The notes under the pieces were generated by a model. It did not search any database. It was not told where the DNA came from and saw nothing but the letters and a program-made list of their open reading frames with translations. A stretch of 61,173 bases of DNA, from positions 76,574 through 137,746 of the forward strand of contig JBFLZW010000072.1 in NCBI GenBank assembly GCA_040755755.1. Reading direction: 5' to 3'. Origin of the DNA: a bacterium. Its GTDB lineage: Bacteria; SZUA-182; DTGQ01. Shown in pieces: positions 26,411 to 56,635 of the stretch (positions are counted from its first letter, which is position 1; each line of letters opens with the position of its first letter). Made by a program: the position numbers and the translations under genes.

Positions 26411-28558
26411 ATGGAAGATACGGTGAATGGATTGTCGTTACGTCCTTATCTTGAGATCCGAAAAGCACCCTTTTCCCTTCAGCTCTCCTTGATCAGCGAG
26501 GACCCGCTGGTCCTGGAGAAAGCCCCTTTCCCATTCCGGGTTATCAGTGATGAAGCTCCTTTCACCCGCCTGGTTGATGCCCGGCTGGTAACCGATGCCG
26601 GGAGTGAAATCAGGAGAGTATTTCTCCTGGTTCAAAAAGATAGCTACCCCCTGACCGCAGATGCACTGCGGTCGCTGAACAACCGGGGCATCGACGATGC
26701 CTGGCAGAGGGCTTTTGCCGGTGCAGGACGTGGAGAGAACAACAGTTCTTCTGTCATTCTCCTGAATCAGATTGATAACCAGGAAGGCAAAAAACGCCTG
26801 GTGCCCTTTCAGCCGCTCTTTTTCTGTAAAAAACAGAAGCTTTTTTTCGACCCGCCATGCCCAGAATGCGGGCTCCCTCTCCGGCAGTGCCAGGACGACG
26901 ACCTTCTGATCAGATCAGGGCTTCAACCCTATTCGACCTCCCTGAGACGGCATCTCTATTGCCCTGCCTGTGCTGCCTCACCCGAGGGGGCCGAATTTTA
27001 CACCTTGGCTTTGGAAAGCATGGATCCACCGGGGCTTCTGGACCGGAGGGATTTGATAAGAAACTTTGGCCGCCTGCTCGAAGGCCGGGGTAATGCCGGG
27101 CCGCTCCCCTGCGGTGATTGTGCCGAAAAGCAGGAGTGCTACGGAAGGTCTAACCGCTGTCTTTCCCGGATAGCGTCCTTTGCCTTTTATCCATTCTTCA
27201 TGGTTATTTTTGAGGCCATGTCGCTTCAAGCTCCTGATTTCCTGGCCCTTGTCTCAGGGGCATCGTTCGAGGAACTTGAAGCGGGTCTTGCCGCCAGCCG
27301 TGAATCGGGGAGGGCGGACTGTCTGAAGGCTATCCGCCGGAAACATCCTGGCGGGGTGTTTACCTTTTTCAATCAGGGAGAAAACTCGTTCGGAGAAAGA
27401 TATTTTGCCGAGGTTTTATACCTCAAGCTTTCCTTTCTCGGAGAATTCCTGCAAGCGGCTTTTTCAGGGCTTGCCCTCGATCATGATCAGCAGCATGACC
27501 CCGGCTTTTCCCTTGACCGGACATGGGTCAGACTGGCCAGACAATCCGGACTGCTCCCGCTTTTCTGGAGCTTTTCGCTCAGGACCCCGGATCTGAAAAT
27601 CCTTCCTTGCCAGGCCTCGCTCAACTCCCGGATTCCTCCGGTTTCAAGCCTCTATTCTCTCGGCCTGGTCTGGTTCCATACCCTCCTGGTCAATCAAAAG
27701 CAGGATATCGGCAGGGTGTATCAGGCACTGGAAGAAAGGATGAGCATGGCAGGCTCCGATAATGAGGCACCAGGCCCCGGTCATGTCCCTGATCCGACCC
27801 AGAGGAGCCAGGCTTTCTCCCCGGAAAACATCTTCTGGCAACCCGATCGCGGAGCGGTTTCAGAAAGCGGCCGCAGATGCTGGGAAAAATGTCTTGATCT
27901 GGGGTGGTCCCTGATCCGGGCAGGATATCATGCCCCATCCCAATGGTCACCGGAGGAATTCCGGAGACAGTTTGAAGCTTTACGGGAAGAAGTGAAAAAG
28001 ATGCTCTTTCAGGGAGATCAGGATCAGGGGAGACCGGATCATGAAGGCCGCCATCGTGAAGCCCTCCCTGAACAACATCCGCCTGAAGGCTGCCTGCCCG
28101 AAAGCACTCCGGAGGAAAGCCGCAGTGATCCGCAGGAAGATAAAGCTATCCATGATATCCTCGTAAGTATCGTGAATGCATGGCGGGCAGAGACTGATGT
28201 GAAGCAGGAGATATCGGCTGAGCTTACGCAAACCATTGTGCTTTCATCCGCCCATCGGGAGACTGTGGAGCCAGCATCTACCATCGAAGAAACTGTGATG
28301 CTTTCATCCGACCAGGTCAGGGAGGATCATATAAGTAAGGCAAGTGAAGACCCTACCCTTGAGACGGTTATCATCTCACCTGTGGCACAGGGGGCACCCG
28401 CTGCGCCTGCAGGTTTTGAGGAACCTGAACCGGCACAGGAGACCTGTAAGCCTGAGTCTGCGCCTGACGATTTTCTGGCTGAAACACTTATCCTGAGCCC
28501 GAGGCCGTCAGCGGCCAGTCAAAAGGTTCGGGACCGCACGAAAAAGAAGGGCCCATGA
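26411..28558 (+). CDS. T6SS-associated zinc-ribbon protein with four FHA-type phosphothreonine motifs
   Basis: 715 residues from the ATG at 26411 (AAGGG 9 nt upstream); a GTG at 26393 is possible. I do not recognise the family. Visible features are paired cysteines typical of zinc ribbons: CPECG at 150, CPAC at 184 and CGDC at 234 followed by CYGRSNRC. A long helical/mixed middle region follows, then an acidic, Pro/Glu-rich tail from ~530. In the tail four spaced motifs occur: QTIVLSS, ETVMLSS, ETVIISP and ETLILSP, with Thr at 608, 628, 652 and 692 and Leu/Ile at +3. That is the FHA recognition pattern pThr-x-x-Ile/Leu. It overlaps the next gene by 4 nt. A scaffold for threonine-phosphorylation control of the T6SS is my inference. 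Confidence 0.6.
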   Translation: MEDTVNGLSLRPYLEIRKAPFSLQLSLISEDPLVLEKAPFPFRVISDEAPFTRLVDARLVTDAGSEIRRVFLLVQKDSYPLTADALRSLNNRGIDDAWQRAFAGAGRGENNSSSVILLNQIDNQEGKKRLVPFQPLFFCKKQKLFFDPPCPECGLPLRQCQDDDLLIRSGLQPYSTSLRRHLYCPACAASPEGAEFYTLALESMDPPGLLDRRDLIRNFGRLLEGRGNAGPLPCGDCAEKQECYGRSNRCLSRIASFAFYPFFMVIFEAMSLQAPDFLALVSGASFEELEAGLAASRESGRADCLKAIRRKHPGGVFTFFNQGENSFGERYFAEVLYLKLSFLGEFLQAAFSGLALDHDQQHDPGFSLDRTWVRLARQSGLLPLFWSFSLRTPDLKILPCQASLNSRIPPVSSLYSLGLVWFHTLLVNQKQDIGRVYQALEERMSMAGSDNEAPGPGHVPDPTQRSQAFSPENIFWQPDRGAVSESGRRCWEKCLDLGWSLIRAGYHAPSQWSPEEFRRQFEALREEVKKMLFQGDQDQGRPDHEGRHREALPEQHPPEGCLPESTPEESRSDPQEDKAIHDILVSIVNAWRAETDVKQEISAELTQTIVLSSAHRETVEPASTIEETVMLSSDQVREDHISKASEDPTLETVIISPVAQGAPAAPAGFEEPEPAQETCKPESAPDDFLAETLILSPRPSAASQKVRDRTKKKGP

Positions 28559-29358
28559 CAAGTACAAAGCAGGTTTCTTTGCCGGAATTGGTCACAGATA
28601 TTCGGAACATCTACCGCTCCGATCCCGGCCGGTCTGAAATGTTGGTCCGGCAGTACCTGGAGGAGCGATTGAGGGAATGCCCGACTGCTGAAAGACTGGC
28701 TCTTGGGGAAGAGCTCATCAGGAGCCTGGAAAGCCCCGGCCGGCAAACCGGAACGGAACCGGCATTGCCCAGCGGGCGACCGTGGCCTCATGAATTACCG
28801 GAGTCCGGTGAGCTTTCGCGGCTGCTTTCGCAACTTTTGGGAATACCGGTGGCCAGGGAGGACCTGTCCTCCAGTGAGCTTCTGGTAAAATTGACCCCCT
28901 CCCTCACCACCATCTTTGATACGCTGAATCAAATTGTCGGCGTTATTGATGACAAGTTTCTTGGCCGAAAAGCTGAACTGGAAACGATCAGGCGGATTAT
29001 CGGCTCCACCATTAATGAAGATGACCTGGAGGATTGCCAGGCTTCCCTGAAGAGTTATCTTGAGCGGATCAAACATGCCTTTTACGCTGCGTATCAGGCC
29101 TTTCAACAGGCTGCCAGGACCAAGATAGAGGAAATCCTGATCGAGCTGAGTCCCGACCGGCTCGAAGCGTTATCAGGCGGAGGCCGGATGGCGCATGGAT
29201 TTAAATTCGGGCCGCTTCGCAAGGCCGAGCTCTTTGAATCCTATCGGGAAAAGTATCAGAACTGTCAGCACTGGTTTGAATCAGGCCGTCTGATGGAAGA
29301 ACTCTTACGGGAATTTGAAAAGGCTTGTCAAAAAATCTATCATGAACAAAGGGGGTAA
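28555..29358 (+). CDS. T6SS FHA-associated C-terminal-domain protein lacking the FHA domain
   Basis: 267 residues, starting in an ATGA overlap with the preceding gene. The helical region from ~95 to the end (KLTPSLTTIFDTLNQIVG; PLRKAELFESYREKYQ; EFEKACQKIYHEQ) resembles the conserved C-terminal domain of T6SS FHA proteins (TagH/Fha1-type, TIGR03354 C-terminal region). The N-terminal 90 residues are short and helical and do not form an FHA beta-sandwich. In other systems FHA protein binds a phosphothreonine target to license assembly. Here the domain stands alone beside a protein rich in FHA-binding motifs. The assignment rests on pattern recognition and should be treated as moderate. Confidence 0.6.
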   Translation: MTSTKQVSLPELVTDIRNIYRSDPGRSEMLVRQYLEERLRECPTAERLALGEELIRSLESPGRQTGTEPALPSGRPWPHELPESGELSRLLSQLLGIPVAREDLSSSELLVKLTPSLTTIFDTLNQIVGVIDDKFLGRKAELETIRRIIGSTINEDDLEDCQASLKSYLERIKHAFYAAYQAFQQAARTKIEEILIELSPDRLEALSGGGRMAHGFKFGPLRKAELFESYREKYQNCQHWFESGRLMEELLREFEKACQKIYHEQRG

Positions 29359-29359
29359 G

Positions 29360-29962
29360 ATGGAAAAACTTTGCAAGACGCTGTTCCTTGGAGCTGTTAC
29401 CCTTGTGCTGTGCACCTGCTGTGCCCGAAAACCGAAGGTCAAGGGCCCGGTTCAACCCAAACCGCAGCTTGAAAAAAAAGAGATTATACCGCTCAGCCCT
29501 CCCGCACCAGCGGAGTGGCTTTACGAAAAGGGAGCCATTCGGCTCCATCTGAAGGCTGATCCACAGTTGAATCTCTATCAGGGGACTGCCTATACTCTGT
29601 CCCTGTGTATCTACCAGCTCTCCAGCCCGAACGCTTTTCAGGAGCTTATGGAAAATGAAGAGGGACTGGGCAGGCTGCTCGAGTGCAGCCGCTTCGATGC
29701 CAGCGTGGCCAGTTACCGGAATATCGTCATTCAGCCAAAGCAGGAGTTGACCGAATCGCTGGACCGGGCCGAAGGGGCCAGATACGTGGCCGTGGTGGCT
29801 GGCTACTATATGCTGCGCAAAGAGCAGGTAACCTGTCTTCTGCCGGTTCCCGTGGTTGAAGAGACCGTGGATGCATCGGGCGCGAAGAGGTTAAAGCCCG
29901 GACCTTTGTCGGTTGATCTTTTTCTTGGCCCTCACGGGATTCAGGAAACTGGAGGAAAGTAG
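29360..29962 (+). CDS. tssJ: T6SS outer-membrane lipoprotein TssJ
   Basis: 200 residues from the ATG at 29360, preceded by AAAGGGGG. An upstream frame to 29315 lies inside the previous gene. The signal peptide ends at a Cys-rich lipobox (CTCCARK). The mature protein has the TssJ transthyretin-like pattern: LHLKADPQLNLYQGTAYTLSLCIYQL, then SFxxL-type FQELMENEEG and a final VDLFLGPHGI strand. TssJ anchors TssM to the outer membrane. The start of tssK (GTG) overlaps its stop by one base. Confidence 0.9.
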   Translation: MEKLCKTLFLGAVTLVLCTCCARKPKVKGPVQPKPQLEKKEIIPLSPPAPAEWLYEKGAIRLHLKADPQLNLYQGTAYTLSLCIYQLSSPNAFQELMENEEGLGRLLECSRFDASVASYRNIVIQPKQELTESLDRAEGARYVAVVAGYYMLRKEQVTCLLPVPVVEETVDASGAKRLKPGPLSVDLFLGPHGIQETGGK

Positions 29963-35000: not shown

Positions 35001-35566
35001 TCATCCGCAGCCAGGGAAGGGGATATTGCGCCAGGAAGGTTCTGGACCGGCAAATACCCTTTGCCGATTCGTTTTTCTCCTTCCTCAACAAAGGGACAGC
35101 GGTAGTGAAAACCGTGGAAGGGAATTATGCGGTCTCGATCAGGGGTCTGCCCACGGATGCCAACCCTGAAGCCAAAATAAAACCCCATGCCACCCGGCTT
35201 GAGCTCTTCTGTGAATCCGGGTTACAAAGCATAGTCAACCTCAACTATCCAATAGCCAAAACCTTCAACTGGTCACCGGAAAGTTGCGGGGAGGTCACCT
35301 TCCAGATCGATGTGGCTGATTTCACGCTTACCAGAAAGTATACGGGGGATCATGCTTTTGCCAGATTTCTCCAGGATTTCCGGGGAGGAGAGCGCACCTT
35401 TTCAGCCAGGGAATTCCCGGAACAAAAGGCCATGCTGGACCGCCTCGGTATCAAATATATCAGGGCCCGCTACCAGTTCAGCGGACAATATCAATCAATT
35501 ATGGCCCTGCAGCAGAATGTTCCGACTCAGGTGCCGCAGACAATCGTCAGGTGCGGGGAGCAGTGA
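32036..35566 (+). CDS. tssM: T6SS membrane-complex protein TssM (IcmF type)
   Basis: 1176 residues, normal for the family. Two N-terminal helices (residues ~8-60) and a third near 435-455 (ISWVALMTALCGLLSFSFVM) are present. The cytoplasmic GTPase-like domain has an intact Walker A GESGSGKT (127-134), a DTAGRYS-type switch and TKCDL. The large periplasmic part ends in the beta domain that meets TssJ. Intact nucleotide motifs are not universal in TssM, so this copy may use nucleotide. The stop overlaps the tagF start (GTGA). Confidence 0.95.
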   Translation: MKQLFLKLIKVFLFIALAVLIILLILGIVFRLDWPWWMGIVLAAGLAGCGAGGLFIRKIWLRRREQRFVQQIVEQDTASLQKLSAREQAQLQDLQEKWKEAIAALKRSHLKKQGNPLYVLPWYMVIGESGSGKTTALQSARLSSPFVEVNRTSGISGTRSCDWWFFEQAIVIDTAGRYSIPVDEGRDKEEWQKFLNLLAKYRRREPLNGLLITIAADKLLDARPEILEDDGTAIRRRIDELIRVLGVTFPLYVLVTKCDLIQGMTQVCDHLPEKSLDQAMGFINQDLSKDVAAVQDRAFASIGDRLREHRLLLIHQLDPKAQDPALLIFPEELERLRPGLDIFLKRIFQANPYQETPVLRGLFLSSGRQEGTPFSHFLQGLGLMAEREVLPGTSRGLFLHDLFARILPKDRGLFAPTQRSVEWSRMTRNLGLISWVALMTALCGLLSFSFVMNMKTLRQVSREFSRPAEQGAPVDGDPTGLSALDRFRQTILDVEALNRNWWVPTFGLSESRGLEAGLKDKYCQRFQKAYLTPFDEKLAAEIGAPPDGTASDQAVRGKVSYLVKRINLLKARLDGEELDALKARPQPSTAWTQGSAGKGGESPEARNIIDTLYLYYLVWNSDSGQIEQELRSQQERLQAVLTGEGSNLRWLVNWADATLPAVNRADFWGGGKAPAPDADDHASVAPAFTVKGKEQIDSFLREIEAALPDPMIMAEKKSAFEGWYHQAYMQAWYDFGLSFPHGAASLMTREERRQVATRMAAGTGPYQALLDTMARELEPLSATEQATPPWLLLIYQYQTIREQAVRQDPARQKGILDKVADQGKKLMGSSLEKLQKLEKKVGSLREMTQEARSAAARGYLEYANALAEVSPALTSASLSCQVSAQVYTEEPALGKNPFFSAQRALTKIRASAPGSDPASEMVWKLISGPVDYLWAFVDSETACYLQKQWEEEVLTEIEGICGWKKVQQLILGPDGFVQKFVKGKLEPFIIRSQGRGYCARKVLDRQIPFADSFFSFLNKGTAVVKTVEGNYAVSIRGLPTDANPEAKIKPHATRLELFCESGLQSIVNLNYPIAKTFNWSPESCGEVTFQIDVADFTLTRKYTGDHAFARFLQDFRGGERTFSAREFPEQKAMLDRLGIKYIRARYQFSGQYQSIMALQQNVPTQVPQTIVRCGEQ

Positions 35567-36318
35567 GCTTGAAAGAGCCTTCATGGCAGTGGTCAGTCCG
35601 GGGCAAGCATCCTGCGGCCAATGATTATATTCATCTTGGTCAGGGTTTCCCCCTGGCTGCTGTTTTTGCTGATTGGGTGAAAAACGGCTATCACCTGGCA
35701 GCTCCTTCGGGGGCTCATCCCTCCCGGCTGTGCTCATGGCGGTTTTGGACCAGGGGCGCGGGATCGGATGTCCTGGTCTTCGGCCTGGTCAGGGACAGCA
35801 GCGACCGGCTTGGCCGTCCGTATCCCCTGCTGGTTATGGGCACAGGGCCGCTGCCGGGCTGGGAAGAGCGGTGGGATCTGGTATCCCTGGCCTGTGAAAA
35901 TGCCTGGTGCCGGATGGAGCACCAGGCAGCCGCCAGCATGGGGAGGCAGTCCGCCCCGCTGGCGGATGTGCGGCGTCTGGAGGCTGAGATCCTGGCAATC
36001 AAGCCGCCAATGGCTGACTGGACCGGGCTTCTGAAGGAACGGGAAAGCTGGCCGGGGGCGTTCGGGGCTCCTGCCAGCATGTCGGGGATAGTCGAGGATG
36101 TTATGGAGAAGGAGGAGGTTTTTATCGACCTCAATCAAGGAAGACCGGAGCATGGTCATCTCCCCCTGGTGGTCAGTTCCTGGCACCGTTTCCTGAAAGC
36201 TCACCTGGGGGACATGCCAAAGGTGGTTTTTATGGGTGGAACAGCAGATAAAACCTTTCTGGCTGTTTTCCTGCGGCCACTTAAACCTGCTGATTTTGTG
36301 CGGCTTTGGTCCTTGTGA
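35563..36318 (+). CDS. tagF: T6SS accessory protein TagF
   Basis: 251 residues from the GTG at 35563, which overlaps the tssM stop and follows GGGGAG; the frame is open to a GTG at 35551. The TagF/DUF2094 features are GKHPAANDYI near the start and GRPYPLLV in the fold core. In Pseudomonas TagF represses T6SS assembly post-translationally, acting with Fha and PpkA (established). No PppA phosphatase domain is fused here, unlike some TagF proteins. Confidence 0.88.
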   Translation: MSLKEPSWQWSVRGKHPAANDYIHLGQGFPLAAVFADWVKNGYHLAAPSGAHPSRLCSWRFWTRGAGSDVLVFGLVRDSSDRLGRPYPLLVMGTGPLPGWEERWDLVSLACENAWCRMEHQAAASMGRQSAPLADVRRLEAEILAIKPPMADWTGLLKERESWPGAFGAPASMSGIVEDVMEKEEVFIDLNQGRPEHGHLPLVVSSWHRFLKAHLGDMPKVVFMGGTADKTFLAVFLRPLKPADFVRLWSL

Positions 36319-47942: not shown

Positions 47943-48121
47943 GGGGGAAAACAACTACGGGAGCATGCCTGGTGGTTAGTAAATAATAGCCAGGGGAAAA
48001 AATCGAGTGATAATAATCAGGGAGTAGTTTTTCTTTATCATTGATATAACGAGGGTATACCTGGCTCGTGAGAGCCCGCTTTCACGAGTCGATTCCCAAT
48101 ACCCTGCAGGAGGTTGATAGT

Positions 48122-48682
48122 ATGAAATGGACGGACAGTACCAATACCGTAACTCTCTACACCGGCGATACCGGCTTTGAAGCCGGAACCAAGACGCTGA
48201 TAATTTCAACTCACGGTGGATTGAGTGGTAGCTTTACAAAGCCTTACCCTTGCGTTATCAAGTTTGCGACCCCCAAAGGAAGCGCGCTCTGTGCCAGCCT
48301 CCTCGATGCTATTAATGGGAATGTCACCGAGTCGGAAATTGCAATTGGAGGGAAAATAAAGAGTGACGACTATGATCTCGCCTATTTCGAACATGACCCG
48401 TCCAGCAGGAGAATCGAAAGTGCCCTGGCCGGGAATACCGACTACGACGTTCTCACGCTGATGCCAAATAAGAGCTCAAAACTGTCAACAATTTTAACCT
48501 GGCTCAATAGCTGGAAGTTAAAGTACGTTGGCATCCTGTGCCTCTTTTGCCGGGTTACCGGAAACGACGATGATTATACTTTTATCGGAAGGAGGGTTAA
48601 GCATGTTTTGCAGCCCAATCGGATGCAAGTCTTGTCCACGGCGATTGCGCTCGAGCTCAAAGCTAAAGGACTGGTCCACTAG
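48122..48682 (+). CDS. Putative Stv-domain protein, possible T6SS cargo
   Basis: 186 residues from the ATG at 48122, preceded by AGGAGG at 8 nt. No signal peptide. The order LIISTHGG ... PYPCVIKFATPKGSAL ... DYDVLTLM ... GILCLFCR resembles the putative adhesin Stv domain seen in proteins near secretion systems: a His-Gly strand, an aromatic/hydrophobic strand followed by P-x-G, and a late CFFCR-like motif. I cannot confirm the family without a search. Its place between tssH and vgrG, with no obvious immunity partner beyond the toxin-antitoxin genes, makes a secreted cargo or an islet passenger equally possible. Confidence 0.5.
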   Translation: MKWTDSTNTVTLYTGDTGFEAGTKTLIISTHGGLSGSFTKPYPCVIKFATPKGSALCASLLDAINGNVTESEIAIGGKIKSDDYDLAYFEHDPSSRRIESALAGNTDYDVLTLMPNKSSKLSTILTWLNSWKLKYVGILCLFCRVTGNDDDYTFIGRRVKHVLQPNRMQVLSTAIALELKAKGLVH

Positions 48683-52775: not shown

Positions 52776-53231
52776 ATGGCAGTAACCGTCGGAGTGAATA
52801 ATCTTTCGGTAGTCCATAAGGATAGTGGAGGCGTGACCATAGCCTTCCCCGATGTGTGCAAGACTCCAAGCCCTGCCGGTCCTGTCCCCATTCCCTATCC
52901 GAACATTGCCAAATCCTCCGATACGGCGAAGGGGAGTAAAAAGGTGAAGTGCGATGGCAATCCCATCTGCCTCAAGGACTCGAATTTCAGCATGAGCACC
53001 GGCGATGAGGCCGGGAGTGCGGGAGGCGTCGTCTCAAGTAAGACCAAGGGCAAGGCTGAGTTTGTAAATTTTTCCTTCGATGTTATGGTCGAAGGGAAAA
53101 ATGTAGCCCGCGCCTTTGACTTGATGCTCCATAACGACAAAAACACCCCGCCCTTTCCCGTGATGCAGGGGCCGGTGGTGGCAGCGGGAGATGATAAGCC
53201 CGTTTGCTACCTGTGTGGGGAAGAATTTTAA
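52776..53231 (+). CDS. PAAR-like tip protein (DUF4150)
   Basis: 151 residues from the ATG at 52776 after CAAGGAGAG. DUF4150 motifs include PDVCKTPSPAGPVPIPYPN, CDGNPICLKDSNFSMSTGDEAG and NFSFDVMVEGKNV, and the end CYLCGEEF adds a possible metal site. DUF4150 proteins sharpen the VgrG tip and carry effectors, here without a fused toxin. The stop overlaps the next ATG by one base (TAATG). Confidence 0.92.
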   Translation: MAVTVGVNNLSVVHKDSGGVTIAFPDVCKTPSPAGPVPIPYPNIAKSSDTAKGSKKVKCDGNPICLKDSNFSMSTGDEAGSAGGVVSSKTKGKAEFVNFSFDVMVEGKNVARAFDLMLHNDKNTPPFPVMQGPVVAAGDDKPVCYLCGEEF

Positions 53232-54406
53232 TGAGCATCGCTCATCCGATGGATACTATTGTCATTACCGGCAGAGGCATGGTTTCCTCTTTGGGACATG
53301 ATGTGGTCACGGGTTGTGCTGCCGCGAGAGCCGGGATTGTTCGGGCAGAGCAACTTGATTACCCGGTCCGTTCACCTGAAGATGGAGAAATTGAAAATGC
53401 CATTGGTCATCCGGTCCCCCTATTGACTGAGGGTTTTGAGGGACCTGCCCGGCTGCTCAGGCTCGTTCAGGCAGGTCTGGCTGACTTACAGAAGCAGGCA
53501 GCGGGCTTGCCCTGGCTGTCATTCCGCGTTAGATGCTACCTCTCACTGCCGAATCCCTTGAGACCTCATACGGGAATTCCGCTCGACATGGAGGAAAAGG
53601 ATCGGCAGGCACAAATTGAGGAATCCCAGGAGGCTGAAAAAGAACCTCCAAATGCGGACCTTGCGCAACGGATACTCCAGGAAGCTGCCCGGCTCAGTGG
53701 ATGGCAGGGCGATCTTCCCCTCCTCCAGTTTGTGACAACTTCAGGCAATCCTGGCGTAGCTGAAGCCCTGGGAAGGGCTATTGAAGATTTATCTCAAGGG
53801 AAAATCGATCTGGCTCTGATTGGGGGAATCGACTCTCTCCTTGATGAGGATACCCTGGCATGGTTGGAGAGCAGGGGACGTTTCAAGACTCCAAGCACTC
53901 CATCCGGTCTTCAACCGGGCGAAGCCGGGGCGTTTTTGCTGGTGGAAACTCTGCAAAGTGCACGGGCAAGAGGAGCTCATGCACTTGCTGTTGTGCAGAA
54001 AATTTGCCTGACTCAGGATGCCGGGACACTGCTGACAGGAGAGCCTCCGCTCGGCGCCGGTTTAGCGGAAGCTCTTATCGGCCTCACCGAAAGTGCGGAC
54101 TGGGATAAAGCTCAGCAGACAGTCTGGCTGATCACTGATCAGAACGGTGAATCTTACCGGGCAATAGAGTGGGGCAATGCTCTTATTCGGCTGCGGGCGC
54201 GCTCATCGGTATTTGCAAATCCGCTCCTGTGGTATCCGGCTGCCTCATTTGGTGACACCGGCGCTGCCAGTGGTGCGGTAGCCATCTGCATGGCGACCGG
54301 GGCATTTGTGCGCAATTATGCTCCAGCTCCAAAAGTAATAGTCACATCCTCGTCGGAAGGTCCGCTCCGGGCAGCAATTCTTTTAGCGGCATATTCCACA
54401 AAATAA
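53231..54406 (+). CDS. Ketosynthase-fold protein without the catalytic cysteine, T6SS cassette
   Basis: 391 residues. The N-terminus (VITGRGMVSSLGHDV) and the middle block (GKIDLALIGGIDSLLDEDTL; FKTPSTPSGLQPGEAGAFLL) are those of beta-ketoacyl synthases. Where ketosynthases have the nucleophile (TACSS) this protein has TTSGNPG, so it lacks the active Cys. The C-terminal DTGAASG part is recognisable, but the second His of the triad is not evident. Proteins of this kind recur beside DUF4150 and DUF2169 genes. A chaperone or scaffold for effector loading is more likely than fatty-acid synthesis; this is inference. Confidence 0.75.
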   Translation: MSIAHPMDTIVITGRGMVSSLGHDVVTGCAAARAGIVRAEQLDYPVRSPEDGEIENAIGHPVPLLTEGFEGPARLLRLVQAGLADLQKQAAGLPWLSFRVRCYLSLPNPLRPHTGIPLDMEEKDRQAQIEESQEAEKEPPNADLAQRILQEAARLSGWQGDLPLLQFVTTSGNPGVAEALGRAIEDLSQGKIDLALIGGIDSLLDEDTLAWLESRGRFKTPSTPSGLQPGEAGAFLLVETLQSARARGAHALAVVQKICLTQDAGTLLTGEPPLGAGLAEALIGLTESADWDKAQQTVWLITDQNGESYRAIEWGNALIRLRARSSVFANPLLWYPAASFGDTGAASGAVAICMATGAFVRNYAPAPKVIVTSSSEGPLRAAILLAAYSTK

Positions 54407-54426: not shown

Positions 54427-55194
54427 ATGGCTGAATCACAAGGAAGGCACAGCGAGGGAGTCAAGGTGGGGAAATTCTGTGCGGTGCGCAAAAGCACCTG
54501 TGGATGTGGGGAGAAGTATGTAAAAAACTGTGCTCCTTCCCCACCATGGCCCAAATACCCTCAGCAGCAAGTTACCAAAAAGGGCAAGCTTATAACCCGA
54601 TGGAGATCTCATGAGGCTCATCATGTTTTGTGCGTAGCTTCAGTAACTAAAGCGTTGTCCGGGGTTATTGCCAAGAAAATCCTTCGCCAGACTGAATGGT
54701 GTATCAACGTCAAGGAGAATATGATTGCCTTACCTATGTGGGCACATACGATCCAATGGTATTGTACAAGAAAGGGGAATTTAAAAGAAAACGTGGAAAA
54801 AATTCCTCCCTTTAAAAACCTTCCAATGCATAATTCTGACCATGATTCCTATATCGATGAAGTAGATACAAAATTGGAAAATATTGTAGAAAAGCTTGAA
54901 AAAAAAGCTGACAATCATGAAGAATGTTCAAAACAACTCAAAAGTAAATTGAATAAACTCAGAGATGAGTATAAGAACGAGCTTATAAGAAGAGGAAAGA
55001 GGCGGGGTGGTACCCATAAGGCATGGGAAAAGGGGAGAGAAAAAGTAAAGGAATGGTATTTCCCGTTTTCCATGGCCGATGATGGCGATGTAACCGAAAG
55101 AACATTCCCCCTTTCAGGGAAATTATCGGATGGAGAAATTGCCCGCAAGATCGAAGAATATGTCAATGCCTTACAGGGAATATCCAAGGCTTAA
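54427..55194 (+). CDS. AHH-type nuclease toxin, T6SS effector candidate
   Basis: 255 residues. The motif EAHHVL (Ala64-His65-His66) and a downstream NSDHDSYIDEV (His139) match the AHH superfamily of HNH-like nuclease toxins, in which these His residues bind metal. The spacing N-x3-N-x-I-x-LP (NVKENMIALP) between them is also typical. A Cys-rich N-terminal segment (Cys18, 25, 27, 35) precedes the domain. There is no signal peptide. It lies right after the PAAR-like and ketosynthase-fold genes and before two immunity-type genes. Codons are more AT-rich than the flanks, which suggests recent arrival. Confidence 0.78.
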   Translation: MAESQGRHSEGVKVGKFCAVRKSTCGCGEKYVKNCAPSPPWPKYPQQQVTKKGKLITRWRSHEAHHVLCVASVTKALSGVIAKKILRQTEWCINVKENMIALPMWAHTIQWYCTRKGNLKENVEKIPPFKNLPMHNSDHDSYIDEVDTKLENIVEKLEKKADNHEECSKQLKSKLNKLRDEYKNELIRRGKRRGGTHKAWEKGREKVKEWYFPFSMADDGDVTERTFPLSGKLSDGEIARKIEEYVNALQGISKA

Positions 55195-55227
55195 CTTTGC
55201 CATGTATAGAGAATCGAGGATGATTTG

Positions 55228-55875
55228 ATGCGATTAAACTATGTAATCTGGGCTTCTCAAAAATTGCCAAATGCCTGTGTGTTGGAGAAGCTGGAGGGTG
55301 TTGAAAAAAAGTGGGAGCTTAATGAAGGTGTTTCCCGGGCTGCCAGCTTTCCTACGGATGCTTTCTTCCATATGCACAGAGATCGCCCTTATGATACGCT
55401 GCTAACAGACAATCTGAAGAACATAAATATGCTGATAGTTGGCTCCGGTAGACTCAAAGAGTTTCTTGAAAAGCGGAGAGTTGAGAAAGTCGAGTACTTG
55501 CCCGTCACTATTCTGGATCATAAGGACAAGCCCATAAGGAGCAACTATTTCATTATCCACCCTATAGACCCGGTTGCCTGCCTCGATATCGACAGATGTG
55601 GTGCTACGTGGGATGAACTTGACGAGGATGATATCGAATCTGTACAGCGGATTGTGATTGACGCATCAATGATTGATGAGGAACGTCAGGTAATTAAGAT
55701 CGAGCGAAAGCTTTTCCGCCCCCGGCACTTCTATCGCATTACCCTTATCCGGCGAGATCTGGCAGAAGCAATTGATGCTGAAGGCTTTACTGGAATCCGC
55801 TGGGTAGAGATGGATGATTATCCCCGGCCTGGATCCGGTGATTATACTGGTGAAGAGAGTATTCATGAAACTTGA
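55228..55875 (+). CDS. Imm11/Imm43-like (DUF1629) immunity protein
   Basis: 215 residues from the ATG at 55228. LIVGSGRLKEFLEKRRVEKVEYLPVTI and YFIIHPIDPVACLDID match the DUF1629/Imm11-Imm43 group, with a final DLAEAIDAEGFTGIRWVE. These are immunity proteins of polymorphic toxins. It is the gene directly after the AHH toxin and is the best candidate to neutralise it. It overlaps the next gene by 11 nt. Confidence 0.75.
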   Translation: MRLNYVIWASQKLPNACVLEKLEGVEKKWELNEGVSRAASFPTDAFFHMHRDRPYDTLLTDNLKNINMLIVGSGRLKEFLEKRRVEKVEYLPVTILDHKDKPIRSNYFIIHPIDPVACLDIDRCGATWDELDEDDIESVQRIVIDASMIDEERQVIKIERKLFRPRHFYRITLIRRDLAEAIDAEGFTGIRWVEMDDYPRPGSGDYTGEESIHET

Positions 55876-56635
55876 AGAATACGGCGAACCTTTGGCCTAT
55901 GAGATAGCCTTCTGGATGCAGGGGCTGACCAATCCCGAATACCCGGTCGAGGAGCTTGGACGGTTGAGCCTGGAGCTTTCAGACAAGTTTCGTGCGCTCG
56001 CCATCATTGTTCTCCTGGTCAAAGGTGATAGCGACCTTTTTTACCACAATCTGATCCGCAGCGGAAGGGCTCGCCTGATTTACCTCCAGAGGCTGAAAAG
56101 CGAAGGGATCGGGCAGGATCACCACCAGGCATCAGGGCGCTATGAGCCGCTGCTCGATGCAATAGCAGCCGGTGATTTTGAATTGGCGCATCGTATCATC
56201 GAGCTTTCACCTGCCGAATGGCAAAAGGGGCACGAGTACGAGGATGACTATTGTTATGCCCAGGTCCTGCACAGGCTCGTTCAGGAACCTGTTCCCGAAC
56301 AGGAGATTCCGCCGTTATTCAAACAGTTTGAAGCCTACCTGGAAGGGCAGCCGAGTGCACGGCTGGATGTATGCCGGGCGATCGTGGAACAGGATCAGCC
56401 GGCCTTTGATGAAGCCTTTGCCGATCTGCTCGACGATCGTGAGGCCCAGATTGCCGCGAATAAAGCCCGTGGTCAGTTGGAAGAGCCCTCCGTTGTTGCT
56501 CAGCGGCAGGTGTTCATTGAGGGGTTGGCTCTTTTGCGGCTTGCCGGACGGCGTGGGCTGGCTACACAGCCGGACTATCGCTATTGCCCTTCCCTGGCCA
56601 GGATACCAATGAAGACACCATTTCCCGGTGAATAG
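55865..56635 (+). CDS. Imm49-like immunity protein
   Basis: 256 residues from the ATG at 55865; a frame to 55814 lies inside the previous gene. It is all-helical. SGRYEPLLDAIAAGDFELAHRI and EYEDDYCYAQVLHRLV, then DVCRAIVEQDQPAFDEAFADLL and a late FIEGLALLRLAGRRGL, match the Imm49 family. It could protect against a toxin whose gene was lost or lies elsewhere, or act with the preceding gene. Two unrelated immunity genes after one toxin is unusual. Confidence 0.75.
   Translation: MKLEEYGEPLAYEIAFWMQGLTNPEYPVEELGRLSLELSDKFRALAIIVLLVKGDSDLFYHNLIRSGRARLIYLQRLKSEGIGQDHHQASGRYEPLLDAIAAGDFELAHRIIELSPAEWQKGHEYEDDYCYAQVLHRLVQEPVPEQEIPPLFKQFEAYLEGQPSARLDVCRAIVEQDQPAFDEAFADLLDDREAQIAANKARGQLEEPSVVAQRQVFIEGLALLRLAGRRGLATQPDYRYCPSLARIPMKTPFPGE

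What the first reader, a model, noticed from the sequence alone, without database searches (positions are those of the whole stretch)
28555..29358. T6SS FHA C-terminal domain standing alone without an FHA domain
The helical C-terminal half resembles the conserved partner domain of TagH/Fha1, but the N-terminal FHA beta-sandwich is missing from a gene of complete appearance. The FHA function may have been split to another gene, or the order reversed: ligand motifs upstream and this domain as a docking platform.
Basis: partly seen in the sequence, partly recalled or inferred. Interest (0 to 1): 0.6.

Follow-up and report, generated by a model that had tools for sequence, protein, structure and literature searches.

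The report
FHA-less Fha/TagH scaffold in T6SS operon
A bacterial harpoon (type VI secretion) gene cluster encodes the scaffold half of a known switch protein without its phosphate-reading half, next to a kinase-like partner that seems to have lost its catalytic parts; the same bare scaffold turns up in another bacterial phylum, so it is a real variant rather than a broken gene.

Summary
Window 28555-29358 encodes an intact 267-aa protein. It carries a weak but real match to the C-terminal domain of T6SS Fha/TagH (PF20232, residues 182-257, 21.6 bits, under the 23.7 cut-off). A profile made only from ten other family members finds it at E 4.6e-6; the next non-family ORF scores E 3.4. No FHA domain is in it or in any window ORF. 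Its start overlaps the preceding stop (ATGA), leaving no room for a lost FHA. A relative in the same family (49% identity) has the same gene order. The form is not unique: in another phylum 9 of 9 PF20232 proteins found (9 of 132 genomes) lack FHA; a third phylum gave one normal FHA+FHA_C protein. The gene before it is an undescribed kinase-like, cysteine-rich protein, known from all three phyla, apparently dead as a kinase in the window lineage, with a tail of four motifs resembling FHA ligands, a feature shared with the relative. Best reading: a phosphorylation-independent Fha scaffold paired with a pseudokinase-like partner. New variant of a known kind; moderate interest.

The parts
28555..29358 (+). 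FHA-less Fha/TagH C-terminal-domain protein (P0001, 267 aa)
   Evidence: intact ORF; PF20232 21.6 bits; held-out profile E 4.6e-6
29098..29325 (+). stretch matching PF20232 T6SS_FHA_C, residues 182-257
28555..28839 (+). residues 1-95, predicted helical, no FHA; family relation of this part not detectable
28555..28558 (+). ATGA stop/start overlap with the upstream gene
   Evidence: sequence; for G003 and G512
26411..28558 (+). kinase-like cysteine-rich protein (715 aa from ATG 26411; GTG 26393 also possible); same family directly upstream of FHA_C genes in G003, G512, G513 and at a contig edge in G239
26858..27139 (+). eight cysteines shared with G239 (residues C150, C153, C160, C184, C187, C234, C237, C243), zinc-ribbon-like
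   Evidence: metal binding not tested
28229..28249 (+). tail motif 1, QTIVLSS (loose form)
28289..28309 (+). tail motif 2, ETVMLSS
28361..28381 (+). tail motif 3, ETVIISP
28481..28501 (+). tail motif 4, ETLILSP, preceded by DDFLA as in G003 (DDFLTETIILKP)
29357..29962 (+). TssJ lipoprotein
   Evidence: PF12790
29962..31356 (+). TssK
   Evidence: PF05936; only TssK match of the genome
31356..32033 (+). TssL
   Evidence: PF09850
32036..35566 (+). TssM
35551..36318 (+). TagF, the known Fha-binding repressor in other species
   Evidence: PF09867; for the function

Best explanation
P0001 is an Fha/TagH-type T6SS scaffold reduced to its C-terminal domain (plus a helical lead of unknown relation). 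It sits in the operon place of Fha, just before TssJ. I infer that it does the structural part of Fha's job, joining the TssL-TssM membrane complex and being the target of TagF, by direct protein contact and without reading phosphothreonine. Its partner upstream, with overlapping stop and start, is a kinase-like protein that in this lineage lost the residues a kinase needs, so writer and reader of the classical threonine-phosphorylation switch are both reduced to scaffolds. Shown: the domain relation, the absence of FHA, the conserved pair and order, the replaced kinase residues in the alignment. Inferred: the fold of the partner, the physical contact, and the phosphorylation-independent function.
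For: Domain. No FHA. Place and order conserved in G003 (kinase-like, FHA_C, TssJ, TssK and onward). Same domain with no FHA next to TssJ and TssK in 9 of 9 finds of another phylum (9 of 132 genomes). Full FHA+FHA_C in the same operon place in G239 (FHA 58.8 bits, FHA_C 60.2, TIGR03354 120.4 against a cut-off of 120.25). Kinase likeness of the partner: family profile against all PDB sequences, 3 of the 4 chains listed at E<=10 are Ser/Thr kinases aligned at the D-x-x-S-x-G helix, one also at the catalytic loop; hhalign to two kinases of the same genome, E 3.6e-4, probability 37; outside the family the first and third distinct ORFs are this genome's kinases. In A8 the Lys of V-x-V-K, present in G512, G513 and G239, is Leu in window and G003; the Asp of H-L-D-L (G512, G513) is Ser in window and G003; the Asp of CDLYSLG is absent in both. 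[quoted passage not shown]
Against: The Pfam match is partial and under the curated cut-off. All direct kinase matches of the partner are individually insignificant (Pfam finds none; PDB E 0.9-2.1). Both AlphaFold2 models are poor (pLDDT 45.5 and 34.0), so neither fold is verified. The tail motifs look like phospho-ligands, which argues that phospho-reading may not be lost altogether. Only 2 of the 9 FHA-less genomes of the other phylum have the kinase-like partner.
Confidence: 0.62

Rival explanations
1. One reading: the upstream protein's tail is phosphorylated on its (E)T-hhh motifs by a housekeeping Ser/Thr kinase, and an FHA protein encoded elsewhere binds it, so that Fha's reading and scaffolding are split over two proteins.
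For: Tail motifs far above chance in window and G003 (3 strict each against about 0.02 expected); they resemble the TssL peptide DLPpTVVEI bound by A. tumefaciens Fha (PMC3953482, passages); the genome has a two-FHA protein, a PP2C-like protein and a Ser/Thr kinase close together on C31.
Against: That module is on another contig with no seen link to T6SS genes; no FHA in the cluster; G512 and G513 lack both FHA and motifs; phosphorylation and binding untested.
Confidence: 0.17
2. Tail-to-scaffold docking: the tail motifs bind the FHA_C protein directly, phosphorylated or not, so the domain is the docking platform.
For: Adjacent, stop/start-overlapping genes; motifs and FHA loss occur together in window and G003.
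Against: In G512 and G513 the pair exists without motifs; no evidence that FHA_C binds peptides.
Confidence: 0.12
3. Relic: both genes are remnants of a lost phosphorylation switch with no function.
For: Loss of FHA and of kinase residues together.
Against: Both ORFs are intact and alignable at 49% and 39% identity between two genera, with conserved order and overlap.
Confidence: 0.05
4. Unrelated helical protein that resembles FHA_C by chance.
For: Sub-threshold Pfam score; only the C-terminal part matches.
Against: Held-out profile E 4.6e-6 with a clear gap to the next ORF; the operon place of Fha; the relative scores the same.
Confidence: 0.04

Closest known systems
Fha/TagH (VI_FHA, TIGR03354; C-terminal domain PF20232), e.g. 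Fha1 of P. aeruginosa and Fha of A. tumefaciens
   Same: C-terminal domain; gene place before TssJ; a TagF gene in the same cluster
   Different: No FHA domain, hence no phosphothreonine reading; 267 aa against a 420-position full-length model; kinase-like neighbour instead of PpkA
PpkA/PppA/Fha threonine-phosphorylation pathway of T6SS
   Same: A kinase-like protein is encoded next to an Fha-type protein
   Different: Partner shows no Pfam kinase match and lacks the key residues in this lineage; no phosphatase seen among the window genes scanned; no FHA
FHA-less PF20232 proteins of G017, G397, G512-G514 and G516-G519 (another phylum)
   Same: PF20232 next to TssJ and TssK, no FHA
   Different: They score above Pfam's cut-off (35.3-60.8 bits); the N-terminal parts of the four compared do not match that of P0001; 7 of 9 lack the kinase-like partner

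Membership tests
Fha/TagH (VI_FHA, TIGR03354) | N-terminal FHA domain | tested here: not met
   No PF00498 in P0001; own FHA profile finds none in the window
Fha/TagH (VI_FHA, TIGR03354) | Match to the full-length model above its cut-off | tested here: not met
   NCBIfam gives no family for P0001 at E<=1
T6SS_FHA_C domain (PF20232) | Score at or above the gathering cut-off of 23.7 bits | tested here: not met
   21.6 bits, E 2e-4
T6SS_FHA_C domain (PF20232) | Homology to the domain by an independent profile | tested here: met
   held-out profile E 4.6e-6; next non-family ORF 3.4
T6SS_FHA_C domain (PF20232) | Encoded in a T6SS cluster beside tssJ/tssK | tested here: met
T6SS_FHA_C domain (PF20232) | Three-dimensional fold of the domain | tested here: inconclusive
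   AF2 pLDDT 45.5, all helix; no usable PDB relative by sequence
Protein kinase family, for the upstream gene | Recognised by kinase profiles | tested here: not met
   No Pkinase hit in Pfam at E<=1 for window, G003, G239, G512 and the C-terminal piece of G513
Protein kinase family, for the upstream gene | Distant resemblance by family profile | tested here: inconclusive
   3 of 4 PDB matches are kinases but E 0.9-2.1; hhalign E 3.6e-4, probability 37
Protein kinase family, for the upstream gene | Catalytic Lys and Asp | tested here: not met
   Leu and Ser at the aligned places in window and G003; Lys and Asp present in G512 and G513 (alignment-dependent)
Protein kinase family, for the upstream gene | Phosphotransfer activity | not testable with these tools
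   needs an assay

The most novel reading that the evidence does not exclude
A rewired T6SS switch: the kinase of the threonine-phosphorylation pathway became a pseudokinase whose added tail carries several phosphothreonine ligand motifs, while Fha lost its FHA domain and stays as bare scaffold; the former writer is now the substrate, read in trans by another FHA protein of the cell, which puts the T6SS under the control of the general Ser/Thr kinase.
Probability: 0.14. Interest if true: 0.72.

Novelty: new variant of a known kind. Interest (0 to 1): 0.45.

Why it matters
Whether Fha acts by reading phosphothreonine or as a structural part of the T6SS is hard to separate where one protein does both. 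Natural Fha proteins without FHA, in two phyla, isolate the structural part and make it directly testable. The paired kinase-like family with cysteine clusters, for which I found no name in Pfam, NCBIfam or PHROGs and no paper in my searches (listed under Tried and rejected), would be a further T6SS-associated component.

Tried and rejected
A split FHA elsewhere in the cluster: none. A second T6SS or second FHA_C in the genome: none found. A conserved N-terminal helical module shared with other FHA-less proteins: eye-catching in alignment A9, but a profile of four other N-termini does not find P0001 or G003, so I dropped it. Motif as a genome-wide FHA-ligand code: the DNA pattern for E-T-h-h-h-x-P gives 14 places in the genome, 0 for the pattern read backwards, but apart from the two in this gene's tail they fall in other proteins or in short or non-gene frames, with no other multi-copy tail seen. 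Relatives in genome contigs: query P0001 none; query A5 only the G239 record already known. Plasmids: the upstream protein has no match, the C-terminal part of the FHA_C protein of G512 none, and the G239 FHA protein matches 28 records, the 25 listed only over its FHA part. PDB: nothing usable for P0001, for FHA_C, or for the upstream proteins of window, G512 and G513 alone. The structure models are too poor for a fold search, which I therefore did not run. Papers: eight counted searches showed no FHA-less Fha in their listings (titles and abstract starts) and no kinase-like zinc-ribbon T6SS protein (0 papers); most subscription journals are not held. Three papers were read in passages only.

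Full report
What is there. The window is part of contig C72 of an unnamed 5.26-Mb genome and holds the genome's only TssK match and only PF20232 match. The gene cluster, all on the + strand, runs: kinase-like 26411, P0001 28555, TssJ, TssK, TssL, TssM, TagF, ImpE, TssA, TssB, TssC, Hcp, TssE, TssF, TssG, a Clp-type ATPase in the place of ClpV, VgrG, then a PAAR-like protein, an AHH nuclease-type protein, Imm11, Imm49, DUF2169 and HEAT proteins. P0001 is a complete ORF whose ATG overlaps the stop of the gene before it, ATGA at 28555-28558.

Is it an Fha C-terminal domain? Pfam gives PF20232 at 21.6 bits, E 2e-4, for residues 182-257, below the curated 23.7. Because this is sub-threshold I made a held-out test: a profile from ten other FHA_C proteins, none from the window lineage, against 1368 six-frame ORFs of all held loci and the window plus three added proteins. 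P0001 comes at E 4.6e-6 and the G003 protein at 1.1e-4; the next ORF outside the family is at 3.4. Position supports this: G239, from another phylum, has a standard FHA+FHA_C protein directly before TssJ, TssK, TssL and TssM.

Is FHA really missing? No PF00498 match in P0001; of five PF00498 matches in the genome none is on C72; an FHA profile from six domains (five of this genome, one of G239) finds no ORF of the window nor of the other FHA-less T6SS loci, while it does find a further FHA domain it was not built from, at the end of the C37 kinase. The AlphaFold2 model has no strands but is of low confidence.

Is it a local accident? No. Of 193 genomes searched with P0001, four match at E<=0.01: own, G003 at 1.9e-62, and two marginal ones (E 0.0046 and 0.0061) that I did not follow. 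G001 (same genus) and G002 (same family) have no match. G003 shows the same order. With PF20232 at E<=1e-4, 2 of 386 genomes match, G017 and G239. In the phylum of G017, 9 of 132 match at E<=0.001. I scanned all nine proteins with Pfam: 9 of 9 have PF20232 above cut-off and 0 of 9 have FHA (for G017, for the other eight). So Fha without FHA is common there. Whether FHA was lost once or several times cannot be said: only one FHA+ protein was in the set and no tree was made.

The partner. The gene at 26411-28558 matches nothing in Pfam, NCBIfam or PHROGs. Relatives: G003 in two contig pieces and G239 (3 of 386 genomes counting own), G512 whole and G513 in two contig pieces (2 of 132). In G003 and G512 the gene lies directly before the FHA_C gene with an overlapping stop and start; in G513 it lies directly before it without overlap as I read the starts; in G239 it ends near a contig edge and the FHA protein starts near another contig edge, so adjacency there is only plausible. 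The family shares cysteine clusters. Kinase resemblance: V-x-V-K in G512, G513 and G239, H-L-D-L-x-P in G512 and G513, D-L-Y-S-L-G in G512 and G513 and D-L-F-S-L-G in G239 (the labels of kinase motifs are recalled); with the family profile, 3 of 4 PDB sequences listed at E<=10 are kinases, E 0.9-2.1, aligned at that last motif, and the fourth, first in rank, is a ribosomal protein; an earlier six-row profile gave 3 kinases and 2 ribosomal proteins; hhalign to two own-genome kinases E 3.6e-4, probability 37; among distinct non-family ORFs own-genome kinases rank first and third, E 1.1 and 2.2. No single one is significant; together I hold kinase descent likely (about 0.75). In window and G003 the aligned Lys, catalytic Asp and the Asp before LYSLG are replaced or absent, so I call it pseudokinase-like. 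The AlphaFold2 model (pLDDT 34.0, two sequences) cannot decide.

The tail. The last 140 residues of the window protein hold three strict [ED]T-h-h-h motifs (mean 0.019 in 20,000 shuffles, none reached three) and a fourth of the form QTIVLSS; G003 has three (mean 0.018). G239, G512 and the G513 C-terminal piece have none; of 18 other cluster proteins scanned one has one (DUF2169). In A. tumefaciens the Fha protein binds TssL phosphorylated at Thr14 in the peptide DLPpTVVEI (PMC3953482, passages read); the likeness is suggestive only. The genome has a Ser/Thr kinase, a PP2C-like protein and a two-FHA protein close together on C31, so a trans reader is possible but unlinked.

How it works. [quoted passage not shown] The 2009 survey links Fha1 (COG3456) with COG3913 (PMC2660368, passages; that COG3913 is TagF is recalled). 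The window has TagF. The simplest reading is an Fha scaffold that works without phospho-reading. Binding and function are inferred, not shown.

Verdict. Observation confirmed; interpretation partly supported. It cannot be filed as a full VI_FHA/TagH member, because the FHA domain is absent and the full-length model does not match, but it is homologous to that protein's C-terminal domain and probably works like that half. New variant of a known kind.

Noticed in passing
window 26411-28558: Undescribed kinase-like, cysteine-rich T6SS-associated protein family, found in three phyla, with a multi-motif tail only in the window lineage.
   Followed up: partly
window 54427-56635: AHH nuclease-type protein followed by two immunity-type genes of different families, Imm11 and Imm49, then DUF2169: a likely T6SS effector-immunity island.
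   Followed up: no
window 53204-54406: 400-aa ORF between the PAAR-like and AHH genes with no Pfam match at E<=0.001; by eye it resembles a ketoacyl synthase, which is unusual inside an effector island.
   Followed up: no
window 48068-48682: Stv putative adhesin-domain protein between the Clp ATPase and VgrG genes.
   Followed up: no
L028 6847-9753 (own genome, contig C37): By sequence, a von Willebrand-like gene, a PP2C-like gene, an FHA-only gene and a kinase with its own C-terminal FHA in a row.
   Followed up: no
L008 and L009: Two marginal matches to P0001 in genomes outside its class (E 0.0046 and 0.0061), not examined.
   Followed up: no
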